Both the position numbers and the translations under genes were made by a program. DNA of 64,000 nt, taken from NCBI RefSeq assembly GCF_016865365.1, contig NZ_AP024469.1:2448501-2512500 (forward strand), read 5' to 3'. Positions 57,704 to 64,000 of this stretch are shown here, one piece after another (the first letter of the stretch is position 1; each line of letters begins with the position of its first letter). The notes under the pieces were generated by a model, which was not told the origin of the DNA, did not search any database, and worked only from the letters and a program-made list of their open reading frames with translations. Source of the DNA: Geobacter sp. SVR (GTDB lineage Bacteria; Desulfobacterota; Desulfuromonadia; Geobacterales; Pseudopelobacteraceae).

Positions 57704-57778
<75 letters not shown>

Positions 57779-57823: not shown

Positions 57824-57860
57824 TTGAGTACCGATTTGAGTACCGGAATTTTGAGTACCG
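57824..57860. repeat. Three direct copies of ttgagtaccg
   Basis: Copies at 57824-57833, 57836-57845 and 57851-57860, identical over 10 bp, spaced 12 and 15 bp apart, right after the tRNA terminator. They look like recombinase arm sites or att-region repeats. Confidence 0.6.
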
Positions 57861-57924
57861 TTTTCGTTGTCATAGTGCAGTTTTTGGGGAATTGAAGAAA
57901 AATGGGGAGCAAGGCGCTCCACAT

Positions 57925-58860
57925 TTAGAAAAGGTGGGGTAATTTATGCGAAAGGAGATCGTTCTCCTTGGATCTGGTAACGTGTCCGGCTATGCTTTCG
58001 TGGTGGAATCTTTCCACGAGGTAGATCAATCCGTTGCTTGATGCACCTACGTATGGATTGCCGATCTGTAGGGCCCATCAGTGAATACCAGCTTCCCCTT
58101 CGCTTGCGCGGGTGACGATAATTTTGACTTTGTGAGGCGTCGGGTTCTGTGTCTCGTCCACGCCCGGGTACTGATTGGGTATCAACCTACCGCAGATACA
58201 CTGAAGAGGTTCAACATCCATGATCTCGGCGTTCACCAATTCAAGGTGTCCCTAGCTCATGCCTCCCTGCTCTTTTTCTTGCTGAGCCAGGAAAGCCCCC
58301 CCCTCTCTGCCTTGGATAGCCCTTTAGGCGTATTATCTTGGGTGTGACATAACCTGCCATCAGGTACTCTCGATGTTGTCGTAGATAGGCTGCATGTACG
58401 GGGCCAGCTTTTCGTCTATGTCGCCTCGATGTCCTTACTCCATCGCACAACGCTGTTCATCGTTCCTCGGAGATAGCTATCAGAACTCTAAATTTGCCCT
58501 CAGAACCACGAAGCCACCCACGCCCTTGATAACTCCAGAAAGGTCACCATTAGAGGAACAATAGACCGTCATAAACTCGTGGGCGGACATGTCGTTCTGT
58601 GTGGGATGTACCTATCAGCAGGTGCTGCAGATTCCGGGGTACAGATCCTCTAATTCGATCCTGACATTTTCGTAAGTTCGGCGTCCAGAGCGAGTATGTT
58701 CGCTTGATACGCACACTGGTATCCTGGGATACCAGGACGTTTTTTGCGCCGATACTCTTCTTGCAGTAGAGAGCGGTGGCAATATTCTATTGTCGTCTAC
58801 TTCCGGTTGCAGGAGTTTTATTACCTTATATGAGCAAGAGGCTATCAACAGCATTGTTTA
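57925..58860 (-). pseudogene. Frameshifted phage-type gene remnant(s)
   Basis: Protein-like sequence is recoverable only in pieces on the minus strand. One piece, 58252 down to 57925, is about 107 sense codons (GRLIPNQYPGVDETQNPTPH, later KVKIIVTRASEGEAGIH, then GNPYVGASSNGLIYLVERF) interrupted by one TGA at 58080-58078. Upstream pieces in shifted frames include DIDEKLAPYMQPIYDNIEST (about 58,425-58,360). No family recognised. Indels and stops make a working product unlikely. Confidence 0.5.
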
Positions 58861-58900
58861 CCACTTAATAGAGCCTTGCTTTCTTAAATCATCTACAATA

Positions 58901-58944
58901 TGAGATAAGTATCTCACACAACACTTAACTATATATGAATAGTT
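58901..58944. promoter_or_regulatory. Two palindromes, candidate phage operators
   Basis: tgagataagtatctca (58901-58916; 7-bp arms, 2-bp centre) and aactat-N6-atagtt (58927-58944). They lie upstream of the promoter for the regulator-like gene and suit a repressor-controlled switch region. Confidence 0.45.
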
Positions 58945-59004
58945 GATATTATCAGTTGACTCATCACAATCTTTATGTGCTATGTAAACTTTACAAATAG
59001 ATAA

Positions 59005-59035
59005 TTGACAAATACTAGTTTTATGATAATATACT
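59005..59035 (+). promoter_or_regulatory. Promoter of the phage regulator-like gene
   Basis: Perfect TTGACA at 59005-59010. Candidate -10 boxes are taatat (16 bp), aatata (17 bp) or tatact (19 bp). It lies about 35 bp before the ATG at 59069. Confidence 0.55.
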
Positions 59036-59068
59036 ATTTTTAATTATTGTTTTATGCGAGGCTAGCTA

Positions 59069-59518
59069 ATGCAACAGATAACACCTGAAAAAGTAAAGCG
59101 TGATAATTCCAATATTCGTAAATACTCGGATACTTTTTGGCGTGAACTGAGAAAGCTTAACAAGCTTAATCGCAAAACGATCAATCCTGATCCTTACACT
59201 AACGAGATGATGTCAGAGATCATGCGCTTATCCATGAACCCCAATTCTGACTTCAATATTGACGTAGGCAACTTCGTAGAGAAAAAGCTGTCTGAGCGGG
59301 AAGCGTTCATCTTCAAGATGTTTCTGTACGGTGGCAACATTAAGCAGCAGGACATTGCCAATAGCTGGATAGGCACGCAGAAGGACTGCGATGGAAATCT
59401 GAAGAGCGTCAGCCAATCTCTAGTCAACATAGAGCTAAAACGAATCTTGAAGATGTTCAAAGAATATTACTATGACGGGGAAAAAAGATGTGCTGGAAAC
59501 TGTAACGGGAACAGATGA
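59069..59518 (+). CDS. Phage-type regulator, sigma-region-4/ArpU-like
   Basis: 149 aa, intact, with a GAGG site. The C-terminal half (LSEREAFIFKMFLYGGNIKQ, then IANSWIGT and VSQSLVNIELKRILKMFKE) has the pattern of a sigma region 4-like helix-turn-helix used by phage late regulators. It sits just before terminase-like sequence, the usual place for such a regulator. A small terminase subunit is an alternative. It overlaps the start of the next (broken) gene by 47 bp. Confidence 0.6.
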   Translation: MQQITPEKVKRDNSNIRKYSDTFWRELRKLNKLNRKTINPDPYTNEMMSEIMRLSMNPNSDFNIDVGNFVEKKLSEREAFIFKMFLYGGNIKQQDIANSWIGTQKDCDGNLKSVSQSLVNIELKRILKMFKEYYYDGEKRCAGNCNGNR

Positions 59519-60220
59519 ACTTGCTCCCTTCGAGACGGAATATGTAGCTGTGCTGCGATTCCTGTCAGATGGTCGATAGAGAAGTACAAAGCGGCACAGG
59601 TGCTCACTTTGAAAGAAGGCAGTGGCGAAGGAGCTGGGCCTTTAGCTTGGATACAAGTGGATGGAGAATGCAGAGTTCCTTGCTACAGCTGTCCAAACAG
59701 CATGTCAGGCATATGGGGAGAAGTACCCTGCCCCGCAATACAGGATGTGAGAACAAGAGTTTGCAGCCCCCCCCTTTTACCAAGGAAAGGACCGACAAAC
59801 AAGCTGACAGTTTAGCTGCGACCAAACTATTTATATGCAAATACCTGTCAAGTAGAGTTCAAGAGTATTTATCAATTCAAAGAATAAATCACAGCCCCAG
59901 GCTTCATTAACCTGCTGAATAGTAGTCCGAACAAGAAGATCCATTGGCATCCGTACGATGGCCAGAGGAAGATCATCGAGGCATATGAGGAACGGATAGC
60001 AGCAAGTGAGGAGTCTCAGCAGAGGGGGCCTTAAATTCGATTACAGGTACAACTGCCTGGTTGCGGCCTGCGGTTGTTATTTTGGAAAGTTCCTATTATT
60101 GGTATCCAGGAGCTGCTGGTGCTTCATGCAAAGGTTCTTATCTGTTCCTATCGCCTGGACAACTGTAAGGTTATCTGCAACAACATCGGCGCTACATTAC
60201 AGGCCTGGGGATTGAGCTTA
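59472..60220 (+). pseudogene. Broken terminase-type genes
   Basis: An ATG at 59472 opens MTGKKDVLETVTGTDELAPF and runs to a TAG at 59577, after which coding continues in other frames. Pieces include SIEKYKAAQVL, KKAVAKELGL and GYKWMENAEFLATAVQTACQ ending YPAPQYRM (to about 59750). Later HWHPYDGQRKIIEAYEERIA (about 59940-60000) resembles the start of a large terminase ATPase. At least five frame changes or stops occur, and no Walker A motif survives. Confidence 0.55.
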
Positions 60221-60229
60221 CTATGGACC

Positions 60230-60940
60230 GTCAGCAGGACTTGGAGATGACGCTTATCAACAGCAGTTGCCTCGAACGATGAACATAGAGGCACGCCCGG
60301 GCACCAGCATCATGCTATTGGCACTAGATGAAGCAAAGCTGTTCGCTCGACCGTCTCAATCCCAAGAATAAGATTAAAGAGTACCACTACTACATCGACG
60401 GCCAGTTCGTTGTTTATAAGCCCATCAAGTGTTCCGCTGCGACGATCATACTTCAGTACTCCCTCCTTTGACGGCTGCGTCGGATATTCTGACGTTCGAA
60501 AATTACAAACCCAGTTTGCCAACAACTTCTTTAAGAACGGGGCCATCCCAGTTGGTATCCTGGAAACAGAGCAGGCTCTTGGCGACAGCCTGCTGCGGAA
60601 ACTTCGTGGAGAGCGGACTAATATTCATGGTGATATCGTCAACGTTCATGAGGTGGCCGTGCCACAGGGCGGTTTGTCATACAAGCCAGTGGCTTCTCAG
60701 CTCAAAGAACTGGATCTGAGCGGTCTGAAGCAAGGAGACATCCAGATCCTCTTTAAGGTACCTGATCCGATCCTCGGTTCTCTTGAGGGTACAGAAGGGA
60801 AAGAGGATAAAGATGCACTGACCGCCTTCTGGCCCACCGCCTGATTCCTCACGTTCGTAGGATTGAAAGTGGCCTAAATCGTGGCCTGAAGATGGGCATG
60901 TTCAAGGGTGGTAAGCTGGTTCTCAGGTTAACTTAAAGGC
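60230..60940 (+). pseudogene. Broken phage portal protein gene
   Basis: LNPKNKIKEYHYYIDGQF (about 60349-60402), then in other frames QTQFANNFFKNGAIPVGILE and GGLSYKPVASQLKELDLSGL followed by FKVPDPILGSLEGT (to 60844), then LIPHVRRIESGLNRGLK (to about 60935). The FFKNGA / VPDPILG pattern is characteristic of HK97-type portal proteins. At least three frame changes are needed to join the pieces. Confidence 0.65.
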
Positions 60941-61373
60941 TGTGGTCGTTAAATCGATATAATCCCGTCAACAGATCCGAATGCTGACAAACTGTACATA
61001 TACAACTCGCAGTTCGGCAACCGGCTTATTGCTCGGGAGTAGCCGGTCCTGGAGCAGAGAAGCCTACGCTTAAGCCCGTGAAAGTAATGACTCCAGCACA
61101 AAAGCCCACACAATAACTATTTATTTACAAATAATCTGTAATAATTTTTCAGATTTTTACGTATAGAATAATACTAGATAAAACTGAAATGACCAAAACA
61201 ATATAAAAGAGACAATTTATAATTTGTCACCAAATACTTTAAAATATACTTTCCCTTTGTAAATAAGGCAGTATGTTGTCTAACATGTGGCAATGATCAT
61301 TGTACTTGTGACAGTGAATAAGGCAAAGTCAAGGTTATTAAAATAGCAAAATGCCTAAAACGAGGAAGAAATA
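60941..61373. other. Non-coding A+T-rich stretch before the neck genes
   Basis: 433 bp. The first ~150 bp may hold further degenerate coding sequence (ADKLYIYNSQFGNRLIARE). From 61110 on it is very A+T-rich with no gene and probably contains the promoter for the following phage genes, though no single -35/-10 pair stands out. A head-maturation protease and a major capsid gene, expected here, are absent. Confidence 0.6.
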
Positions 61374-61955
61374 ATGTCATTCACCACAATAGCCAGTGCC
61401 TGTGCTTCACTGAATAAAGATCCTGCCGATCTGTCTCCCCTGGAGACTACGCAGGTGTCCATGCTCATCACGCAGATCGATGGTGTCATTATTAACTACT
61501 GTGGCTGGCACCTACTTGCGAGAGACTATACGGACAAAAGATACGATGGGGACGGGACGGCGCTGCTTGATCTTCGCGTCTATCCTGTCAACTCTGTCAC
61601 TGGTCTGCGTATGCGGGACTCAGGCGGCACGTTTACCGACTACGATCCGTCAACTCTTGAAATTCTCGATGGAGGGCTGCTCCAGTTCGATCCTGCGACT
61701 GCTTCAGGCTCAACGTTTACTACTGGCAAAAACAACATCTTTATATCCTTTAACGCTGGGTTCACCACTGCTCCCAGCGACCTGGAATATGCAGCAAACT
61801 ACCTGATCGCTCTACACTTCAATCGCATAGTAAATGATGCAATGGGCGTGCAGTCTCTCAAAAATATGGGAGCAGAAGTTGTTTTCTCAGATTTGGAATT
61901 GCCCATAATGGTTAAACGGGTGCTTGATCGTTACCAAATACCATCTATTTCCTGA
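61374..61955 (+). CDS. Phage head-tail connector protein (gp6-like)
   Basis: 193 aa, intact, with a GAGGAAG site. N-terminal helical part (SPLETTQVSMLITQIDGVII), then YDGDGTALLDLRVYPVNSV and an IFISFNAGF strand, then a C-terminal helix, as in gp6/YqbG-type connectors that form the ring below the portal. First intact structural gene of the prophage. Confidence 0.75.
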   Translation: MSFTTIASACASLNKDPADLSPLETTQVSMLITQIDGVIINYCGWHLLARDYTDKRYDGDGTALLDLRVYPVNSVTGLRMRDSGGTFTDYDPSTLEILDGGLLQFDPATASGSTFTTGKNNIFISFNAGFTTAPSDLEYAANYLIALHFNRIVNDAMGVQSLKNMGAEVVFSDLELPIMVKRVLDRYQIPSIS

Positions 61956-61963
61956 ATATTGCC

Positions 61964-62611
61964 ATGAGATTAGACAAGATAATCCATAATTTTGAAAAAA
62001 ATACCGTTGGAATGCTCCAAGGTAAGCCACGAATGCTGAATCTGGACAAAACAGATGCAGATCATCCAGACGGCTTACACATAGTAGGGCACGTAAAGGC
62101 AAACACCATGGCTACTGCACCATGGTCACGAGTAAAAGTACATAAGGGTTACTTTTACGGGGTAACTGATTCGGCTATTTCAAATGGTGACCTAGTACTG
62201 GACCGCTCTGATAATTACTACTATTTGGTGATGTCAGTAAAAGCAGAGCGCCTTGGGGGGTATGTTACGTACCTGGATGGCACCTTGTTTCTATGCGACA
62301 GCCAGATCGAAATTTCCCGCTTCGAGGAAGGAGAGAGGGACAATTTTGGGCGAGTCCTGACGCCTGGTTTGACAGTGAAAGTGCCATTCGCATACGCGAC
62401 CACTAATTTAAAAAACTTCGACGTGCTTGAGCAGAAAGACCGTTTGGTGCCGCAGGAAAAATTAATCATCTACGTACAGCCTAAGACCGGGGTACAGGTA
62501 GCTGACAGAATTATTATGCTGGACACTATGGATAGATATCGAGTTGTCAGTATAGACAAAAAATCGATTATTGGCCTGTGGTCTTGCCAGGTAGACGTGG
62601 ATGACAGGTAA
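61964..62611 (+). CDS. Phage structural protein, probable head-closure/neck type
   Basis: 215 aa, starting 8 bp after the connector gene, no strong ribosome-binding site. Beta-rich sequence (VKVHKGYFYGVTDSAISNGD, YYYLVMSVKAERLGGYVTYL, MDRYRVVSIDKKSI). No family recognised with certainty. Position between connector and tail-terminator-like gene suggests a head stopper. Confidence 0.55.
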   Translation: MRLDKIIHNFEKNTVGMLQGKPRMLNLDKTDADHPDGLHIVGHVKANTMATAPWSRVKVHKGYFYGVTDSAISNGDLVLDRSDNYYYLVMSVKAERLGGYVTYLDGTLFLCDSQIEISRFEEGERDNFGRVLTPGLTVKVPFAYATTNLKNFDVLEQKDRLVPQEKLIIYVQPKTGVQVADRIIMLDTMDRYRVVSIDKKSIIGLWSCQVDVDDR

Positions 62612-62617
62612 ACTGTT

Positions 62618-63043
62618 ATGAATATCAACTCAATAGAATCAAGCCTTTATAAGCTGCTGTACGACACATTTGAAGCTACGGACGGTATCAGAATCTTTGA
62701 AAACGTCTATTACGTGGATTTCAAAAATCACGATCAGTGGATCGTGATCGACAGTCAGACGAACACTGCCGGCGCGATTCCAAAAGCTACTTTCAACCTT
62801 CACATCTCGATAAAGAATGGCCTTATGAATGAGAAGGTTGTGCTGAACAAGCTGCTTGACAAAGTACTGAAGGTAATGACCCCTGGCTACAGATTTGACG
62901 TTTTGGATGGAGATACCGCGGATCTCATTGGTGAAGCGGAAATAACTGAAACTTCCTTATTGCCGGTCATGCAGCATCAAGGCGGTGGAAGTTTCAGGAG
63001 CCTAACGATTGGGGTTGTTTACGCAGGAGAGATTCCAGCGTAG
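62618..63043 (+). CDS. Phage protein, probable tail-terminator/completion type
   Basis: 141 aa. Alpha/beta pattern with an N-terminal helix (SIESSLYKLLYDTFE), central strands (DQWIVIDSQTNT, ATFNLHISIKNG) and C-terminal RSLTIGVVYAG. Size, fold pattern and position fit tail-terminator proteins. Six base pairs after the preceding gene. Confidence 0.55.
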   Translation: MNINSIESSLYKLLYDTFEATDGIRIFENVYYVDFKNHDQWIVIDSQTNTAGAIPKATFNLHISIKNGLMNEKVVLNKLLDKVLKVMTPGYRFDVLDGDTADLIGEAEITETSLLPVMQHQGGGSFRSLTIGVVYAGEIPA

Positions 63044-63088
63044 GGATGCGCTGGATAATGAAGATAAATTTGAACAGGAGAAATAAAA

Positions 63089-64000
63089 ATGGCATTGGAT
63101 AGAAGTACACAACCTATTGTTAAAGATGCTTCCGGCGTTCTCGTTGGCGTTGCCCAGATTCGCGTTGGTAAGCCGTCTATTCGTGAAGCGGGGACTGCTG
63201 TGGTTGCCCCTAAAATTGTTGCTGTTGGGAAGAGTCAGAAGGCTATGGCCGTCTCCAACAACAGCGTGTGTCTGGTAAAGCCGAACGTCGTGTGGTCTGC
63301 TAATGGCCTTGCTGCCGCTCCGAACGCTACCATTGATGGAGAATACACTGGCAAGATCGATGGCTGCATCATCCTGAGGGCCGCTGCCGTAACCGGTAAC
63401 GTGGCGGAGACCTCCAGCTCCAGCACAGCTTCCGCTATCGAGTGTTTCGATACCTATGGTCGCAGAACCATTGCTACAGGCAGCTACCCTGCCGGCGTTA
63501 CTGCTACTATCCAGGGTGTGACCATCACTGCTGATTTTACTGGTGCAAATGTCGGTGATACGTGGGTTCTCCCCGTCTGGACCGGGGCTGCCATCAGCAT
63601 CCAGCAGACAGGTATCGTGTCCCCGTTCTCTATGTTTTACGACGCAACAGACTCCATTGGTGGCCTGAAATCTGCTTCCTTTCAGCCTAAGATTGACTCG
63701 GTCAAGAAGCTTCAGTCTGGTTTTCCCAGTTACGTGGCTGACCAGATTGTTGACTCCGTCTCGGTAGAAGTGCAATGGAACGGGTACGAATACACCAACA
63801 GCAAACTGGCTCTTCTGAAGCAGATGATCGCTCGTGTCATCAACACTGGCGAACTGTCCGCTATTTCAGTTGAGATGGTCATGCGTACTCGTGGCGGCTC
63901 GCTTGTTCGAATGTGGCTTCCGACCTGTACTTTTATGGCTCTGCCTACGTATGCGCCGACCAACGACTACTCGGACGTTCAGTTCCATATGTCTGCTCTG
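63089..64000 (+). CDS. Phage tail-type structural protein, 3' truncated by window edge
   Basis: 304 codons visible from ATG 63089 (MALDRSTQPIVKDASGVLVG), with an ACAGGAG site; the frame is open to the window end. Beta-rich, Thr/Ala/Val-rich (ATIQGVTITADFTGANVGDT) with QIVDSVSVEVQWNGYEYTN. This fits a tail tube or similar virion protein. Function inferred from position after the terminator-like gene. Confidence 0.6.
   Translation, partial: MALDRSTQPIVKDASGVLVGVAQIRVGKPSIREAGTAVVAPKIVAVGKSQKAMAVSNNSVCLVKPNVVWSANGLAAAPNATIDGEYTGKIDGCIILRAAAVTGNVAETSSSSTASAIECFDTYGRRTIATGSYPAGVTATIQGVTITADFTGANVGDTWVLPVWTGAAISIQQTGIVSPFSMFYDATDSIGGLKSASFQPKIDSVKKLQSGFPSYVADQIVDSVSVEVQWNGYEYTNSKLALLKQMIARVINTGELSAISVEMVMRTRGGSLVRMWLPTCTFMALPTYAPTNDYSDVQFHMSAL

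What the first reader, a model, noticed from the sequence alone, without database searches (positions are those of the whole stretch)
57860..64000. Prophage with broken packaging genes, no capsid gene, but intact neck and tail-side genes
Terminase-like and portal-like sequences survive only as pieces in shifting frames (59.47-60.94 kb), and no room is left for a protease and major capsid gene before the connector at 61,374. From there four consecutive genes are intact with normal spacing and ribosome-binding sites. Selection appears to have spared the tail side. This could be a step toward a phage-tail-like particle, or uneven prophage decay.
Basis: partly seen in the sequence, partly recalled or inferred. 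Interest (0 to 1): 0.7.

Follow-up and report, generated by a model that had tools for sequence, protein, structure and literature searches.

The report
Defective prophage missing its head genes
An 80 kb virus genome lodged in a bacterial chromosome has lost the genes for its DNA-holding head but still has open genes for its tail, DNA copying and integration, so it looks like an ordinary virus remnant that has decayed unevenly rather than a finished tail-only weapon.

Summary
The observation largely holds. The finding is the left edge of a 79.6 kb prophage integrated in a tRNA-Gly gene (38 bp att core at both ends). Its left 3.5 kb is decayed: a PhoH-type gene with five in-frame stops, pieces where a terminase should be (no family match), and the middle of a portal protein (PF04860). 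There is no room for protease and capsid, and no PF05065 capsid or second PF04860 portal in the genome. From the neck gene at 61,374 on, three large blocks are 90-97% coding: lambda-like tail, four large fibre genes, a BstA-type gene, a T5-like DNA polymerase with other replication and nucleotide genes, and an integrase lacking only its last residues. Only the far right end is sparse too (56%). So what was spared is far more than 'the tail side'. Tailocins lack replication genes, so this is not one by definition. Best reading: a head-minus defective prophage in uneven decay. A tail-only particle, a patchwork with an older remnant, and a helper-dependent element remain possible. No close relative was found in the collections searched, so dN/dS against other phages could not be computed.

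The parts
57704..57778 (+). tRNA-Gly (ccc), integration site; 38 bp att core at 57733-57770
   Evidence: ARAGORN; core also at genome 2585846
57826..57860 (+). three GAGTACCG repeats, probable integrase arm sites (two more sit beside the integrase at the other end)
57967..58974 (-). decayed PhoH/PIN-type gene, five in-frame stops between 57967 and 58425; the part beyond is a weak match
   Evidence: tblastn (57967-58425 in 9 of 9 loci tested; 58633-58974 in 1 of 9); intact relative named PF02562
59069..59518 (+). open reading frame of 149 aa, no family match; possible small terminase by position
59470..60460 (+). pieces in changing frames where terminase genes would be; identity unproven
60464..60930 (+). 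portal gene remnant: middle in one frame, next part probably in another (by eye), N-terminal part not found
60950..61373 (.). gap, AT-rich towards its end; protease and major capsid genes absent
61374..61955 (+). head-tail adaptor (connector), intact
   Evidence: phrog_442 E 3e-20
61964..62611 (+). intact ORF, 215 aa, probable head-closure protein by position
   Evidence: phrog_37035, unknown function; fold attempt failed
62618..63043 (+). intact ORF, 141 aa, probable tail terminator by position
   Evidence: no family
63089..64000 (+). start of a 348 aa ORF (ends beyond the window), probable tail tube by position and sequence appearance
   Evidence: (no family); fold attempt failed

Best explanation
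This is the left edge of a large (79.6 kb) temperate siphophage prophage integrated by a tyrosine integrase into the 3' half of a tRNA-Gly gene. It has become defective by losing its head and packaging module: protease, capsid and the N-terminal part of the portal are gone, and stops and frame changes ruined what was left, together with the PhoH-type gene next to attL. Most other modules have stayed open. If induced it could in principle replicate, make tails and lyse the cell, but it could not build or fill its own heads. Shown: integration site, lesions, absence of the capsid family searched, open ORFs. Inferred: deletions as the cause, order of events, loss of function, and what induction would do.
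For: 38 bp att core at both ends, 79,613 bp apart, with GAGTACCG clusters at both ends. In 1 of 2 same-genus genomes searched (G256) sequence like the right flank (68% identity) lies about 2.5 kb past a tRNA 91% identical to this one. GC about 0.5 against about 0.6 outside. Portal remnant and connector lie in the usual phage order and strand. No PF05065 match and only this PF04860 match in the genome, while each family rings in 4 of 14 control genomes. Coverage by ORFs of 80 aa or more is 0.43 in the left 3.5 kb against 0.97, 0.94 and 0.90 in the tail, fibre/lysis and replication blocks. Of 60 element proteins or pieces scanned with PHROGs, none matches a family described as major capsid or terminase; families filed under 'head and packaging' appear for the portal piece, a ClpP-like protease, a fibre and two fibre-assembly-like proteins. 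PMC7744054 (passages): packaging and structural genes such as terminase, portal and capsid are preferentially lost, and tail fibre and integrase genes enriched, in incomplete prophages.
Against: The PhoH remnant has 2 stops in about 129 aligned codons; at that rate the roughly 19,000 codons of the three main blocks should hold hundreds under uniform neutral decay, yet these blocks are nearly filled by open frames. So the rest was either maintained by selection after head loss or is younger than the left end. PMC7744054 says replication genes too are preferentially lost; here they are kept. The right end (7.6 kb, coverage 0.56) and a 4.6 kb strip (0.71) are also sparse, so decay may not be limited to the head side; six frames of 3.9 kb there matched only excisionase families. 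In G256 the left-flank gene lies on another contig than the tRNA, so only the right flank supports the empty site. Terminase identity is unproven. Capsid families other than PF05065 were not searched in the genome.
Confidence: 0.62

Rival explanations
1. An early tailocin: the host keeps the element because induction releases headless lambda-like tails with several receptor-binding fibres that kill relatives, and the remaining phage genes have not yet decayed.
For: Open tail and fibre genes. Among fibre segments of 73% identity or more between paralogues, 6 of 7 give dN/dS 0.08-0.27 and the seventh is saturated; C-terminal parts have diverged. Short tape-measure protein of 431 aa.
Against: Integration, replication and nucleotide genes are as open as the tail; the head-tail adaptor, useless without a head, is intact; tailocins lack replication genes (PMC12090994, passages). 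Fibre dN/dS may predate head loss, and synonymous sites are near saturation (dS above 1) in 3 of those 6 segments.
Confidence: 0.13
2. A patchwork: an older, decayed remnant of a related phage already sat at tRNA-Gly, and a younger intact element recombined with it near 61.1-61.4 kb, losing its own head genes at once and keeping the old ruined left end.
For: Sharp boundary between ruined and open DNA at an AT-rich non-coding stretch. Explains the different states directly.
Against: No second att core: the tRNA region's only strong match in 2560000-2599999 is attR, and its exact core motif occurs once in the 160 kb. Portal remnant and connector are in normal order with similar GC. Arm-like repeats sit at the ruined end too.
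Confidence: 0.15
3. A helper-dependent element: it lost its own head genes while still moving, packaged into heads made by another phage, and supplies its own tails and replication.
For: Most functions except head and packaging are open, integrase and att included. A second prophage with a T7-type terminase exists in the genome.
Against: No second copy in this genome (connector, portal piece and 348 aa protein each match one place) and no close relative elsewhere. The other prophage has a T7-type terminase, not obviously compatible with this neck. Known satellites are mostly small and use helper parts (recalled; PMC10803314 seen as the start of its abstract in a listing, PMC4936722 as abstract and outline).
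Confidence: 0.05
4. Assembly or sequencing error in the left end.
For: Frame changes are a common long-read error (recalled), and C runs occur here.
Against: The PhoH remnant keeps one frame through five stops. Portal N-terminal part, protease and capsid are missing outright. Downstream blocks of the same assembly are nearly filled by open frames.
Confidence: 0.03

Closest known systems
Defective (incomplete) prophages as surveyed in PMC7744054 (passages)
   Same: Integrated phage that lost portal and capsid genes (terminase probably) but keeps integrase and tail fibres
   Different: Very large; replication genes, which that survey says are also lost preferentially, are kept here
F-type tailocins (lambda-like; PMC12090994, passages)
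   Same: Lambda-like tail and fibre genes without a head (details of F-type gene content recalled)
   Different: Keeps integrase, replication, nucleotide metabolism and adaptor genes
Rhizobium phages RHEph10 and vB_RleS_L338C (115 and 110 kb)
   Same: Among the best-covering J tail protein matches (24-26% identity over 90%); similar order of tail genes
   Different: L338C has annotated portal and protease genes; longer tape-measure proteins; only remote similarity
T5-like phages (My1, DT57C, Vibrio phi 3; grouping recalled)
   Same: Top-listed DNA polymerase matches (27-28.5% identity)
   Different: Here joined to a lambda-like tail and an integrase

Membership tests
Prophage (integrated temperate phage) | att repeats flanking the element at a tRNA | tested here: met
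   38 bp core at both ends, tRNA-Gly
Prophage (integrated temperate phage) | Integrase with catalytic residues | tested here: met
   phrog_1 E 2e-46, PF00589 E 3e-10; motifs read by eye; last 27 or so residues come from an IS
Intact prophage | Complete terminase, portal, protease and capsid genes | tested here: not met
Tailocin, F-type | Lambda-like tail and fibre genes present | tested here: met
Tailocin, F-type | No head, replication or packaging genes | tested here: not met
   replication genes present; head genes mostly gone
Tailocin, F-type | Headless particles that kill relatives | not testable with these tools
   needs induction and microscopy
Phage satellite | Mobilised by a helper phage | not testable with these tools
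   needs transfer assays; no relative of the 348 aa protein in 395 genomes of the phylum apart from itself

The most novel reading that the evidence does not exclude
A mobile element that kept its own replication machinery, tails, fibres and integrase while discarding heads, and travels in heads supplied by other phages: a tail-bringing satellite, the mirror image of capsid-forming satellites that borrow tails.
Probability: 0.05. Interest if true: 0.8.

Novelty: new member of a known kind. Interest (0 to 1): 0.3.

Why it matters
The element shows loss of one module in an otherwise largely open, large prophage. That is a useful natural case for asking whether head genes go first because they are costly, because tails are useful, or by chance. 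If tails are released on induction, it would be a tailocin-like state that still has replication genes, which the tailocin review seen here (PMC12090994, passages) gives as lost.

Tried and rejected
Rejected: 'tail side selectively spared' as sole description (replication, integration and BstA genes are open too); 'capsid elsewhere' for the PF05065 family (0 matches); a second PF04860 portal (none); the two PF03237 matches elsewhere as a spare terminase for this phage (one lies in a UvrD-type helicase by eye; the other is the T7-type terminase of another prophage).

Led nowhere: genome-contig scans with the connector and the J protein (0 relatives each); viral-contig scans with J, polymerase and the 348 aa protein (J and the 348 aa protein found one contig, IMGVR_UViG_2894661207_000005; polymerase found none). 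The 16,058 bases of that contig fetched are 100% identical to this genome, so it is probably this strain. Class-wide search with the connector: 6 remote matches besides itself in 277 genomes, best 33% identity. Phylum-wide with the 348 aa protein: 1 of 395, itself. Class-wide with the portal piece: 1 of 264, itself. Class-wide with the polymerase: 258 of 271 match, apart from the own element apparently through cellular DNA polymerase I (inference). Phage records with the 348 aa protein: no match; with the L-type tail protein: 482 records, best 26% identity. Plasmids: no match. Two structure predictions without alignment had mean pLDDT 35 and 31 and were not used. Without a close relative dN/dS against other phages could not be done; only internal paralogues were compared: fibre pairs as reported, while three other pairs were saturated. 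Neck, tail and portal pieces against six fetched stretches: connector matches in 3 (L027-L029, which had been fetched because of it), the 129 aa tail protein in 1 (L051), nothing below E 0.05 for the portal piece and the other eight minus these. Not scanned with PHROGs: the first and last fibre genes, the second QueC-like and the SocA-like gene (Pfam only), the transposases and most ORFs under 100 aa.
Full report
What is there. The window lies at 2,448,501-2,512,500 of a single 4.72 Mb contig, so the finding could be followed to its end. A tRNA-Gly gene lies at 57,704-57,778. A 38 bp block from its 3' half recurs at genome position 2,585,846, 79,613 bp away. GAGTACCG is clustered three times beside the left copy and twice beside the right copy, next to a tyrosine integrase. 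GC is about 0.5 between these points and about 0.6 outside. In one of two same-genus genomes, sequence like the right flank sits about 2.5 kb beyond a matching tRNA; the left-flank gene is on another contig there, so synteny is shown on one side only. Together this defines one integrated element.

The left end. From attL to the connector, 43% of 3.5 kb is covered by ORFs of 80 aa or more, against 90-97% in the three main blocks. On the minus strand, 57,967-58,425 aligns at 47-48% identity with proteins from related genomes (9 of 9 loci tested; the one scanned is PF02562 PhoH plus a PIN domain), in one frame with five stops, two of them opposite aligned residues and three in a stretch without counterpart; a weaker piece reaches 58,974 in 1 of 9. 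A 149 aa ORF without family matches follows (59,069). The next kilobase has no statistically supported identity: terminase is expected by position only. The middle of a portal protein is well supported (PF04860 positions 147-256 of 321). Its N-terminal part was not found, and residues that seem to continue it are in another frame (by eye). Between it and the connector lie about 420 bp, AT-rich towards the end. The genome has no PF05065 capsid and no other PF04860 portal.

The rest. The connector is a head-tail adaptor (phrog_442). Then come two small ORFs (head closure and terminator by position), a 348 aa ORF without family (tube by position), a chaperone-like ORF whose -1 frame stays open for over 100 codons past an A6 run (a lambda G/GT-like arrangement by inference, and the heptamer is not in the canonical register), a 431 aa tape-measure protein, minor tail and tail-assembly proteins and a J-type tail protein (an L-type by the annotated matches). 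Four large fibre genes follow (1112, 1232, 1195 and 1376 aa; the middle two were scanned). Between paralogues, 6 of 7 segments with 73% identity or more have dN/dS 0.08-0.27 and one is saturated; C-terminal parts have diverged. Lysis genes are suggested by sequence appearance only; PHROGs found no match for them. Then a BstA-family gene (phrog_6287, E 1e-93; no Pfam match), and on the other strand ribonucleotide reductase, a ClpP-like protease that also matches head-maturation protease families (its place among nucleotide genes suggests that it is not the head protease, but this is not proven), dUTPase, SbcC- and SbcD-like proteins, exonuclease, a DNA polymerase closest to T5-like phages in the listing, primase, DnaB-like helicase and dNMP kinase. 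The right end is sparse: 7.6 kb at 56% coverage, where six frames of 3.9 kb matched only excisionase families. The integrase ends the element. An IS copy identical to one at 2,618,482 supplies roughly its last 27 residues; the catalytic motifs remain (by eye).

Meaning. The lesions that can be recognised lie at one edge, while the main blocks, about 19,000 codons, are nearly filled by open frames. ORFs were picked for being open, so the argument rests on the small gaps left, not on the count. Uniform neutral decay does not easily give this. Either the rest was kept by selection after head loss, or the left end is older. But what is kept is much more than tails: the adaptor and the replication genes, which a tailocin does not need, are open as well. 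Hence a head-minus defective prophage in uneven decay is the best reading, in line with the reported preferential loss of terminase, portal and capsid genes in incomplete prophages (PMC7744054, passages), although that survey also finds replication genes lost. A tailocin in the making, a patchwork with an older remnant, and a helper-dependent element are rivals that need a close relative or bench work to decide. No close kin was found: searches in IMG/VR (apart from one identical contig, probably this strain), GTDB species genomes, phages, plasmids and relatives.

Literature seen: PMC12090994, PMC7744054, PMC3173496 and PMC8585504 as passages; PMC4936722 as abstract and outline; PMC10803314 as the start of its abstract in a listing. 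PMC3173496 describes the opposite loss in Wolbachia prophages (tail module missing, head module kept), so module-wise loss in either direction is known. Searches with terms for headless siphophage prophages, Geobacter tailocins and prophage domestication listed no paper whose title or abstract start describes this element; that is no proof that it is unpublished.

Changes after checking: the count of PhoH stops was split into aligned and unaligned ones, the sparse right end and the one-sided synteny were added, and dN/dS segments were recounted. None of these required a change of odds.

Noticed in passing
genome 2552332-2553315 (L003:7333-8313): BstA-family abortive-infection gene inside the element (phrog_6287 E 1e-93; no Pfam match); cognate aba site not looked for.
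   Followed up: partly
genome 2523212-2548361: Four large tail-fibre genes that form two pairs with similar starts (first 150 codons 89% and 97% identical) and diverged ends, with fibre-assembly-like genes and two QueC-like genes between and after them.
   Followed up: partly
genome 2514170-2515465 (L001:9171-10466): Tape-measure protein of only 431 aa, against 1566 aa in RHEph10 (from its coordinates): predicts an unusually short siphophage tail or an internal deletion.
   Followed up: no
genome 1731000-1748000 (L047): A second prophage with a T7-type terminase (PF22530), next to clpX/clpP/tig-like genes (by eye).
   Followed up: partly
genome 2526547-2527716 (L002:1548-2717): DDE transposase gene (PF01609) overlapping the end of the first fibre gene by 4 bp.
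   Followed up: no
genome 2555668-2556360 (L003:10669-11361): ClpP-like protease in the nucleotide-metabolism cluster that also matches phage head-maturation protease families.
   Followed up: no
genome 2575459-2583047: Right end of the element is sparse in ORFs (56% coverage) and may hold further decayed genes; only an excisionase-like match was found.
   Followed up: partly
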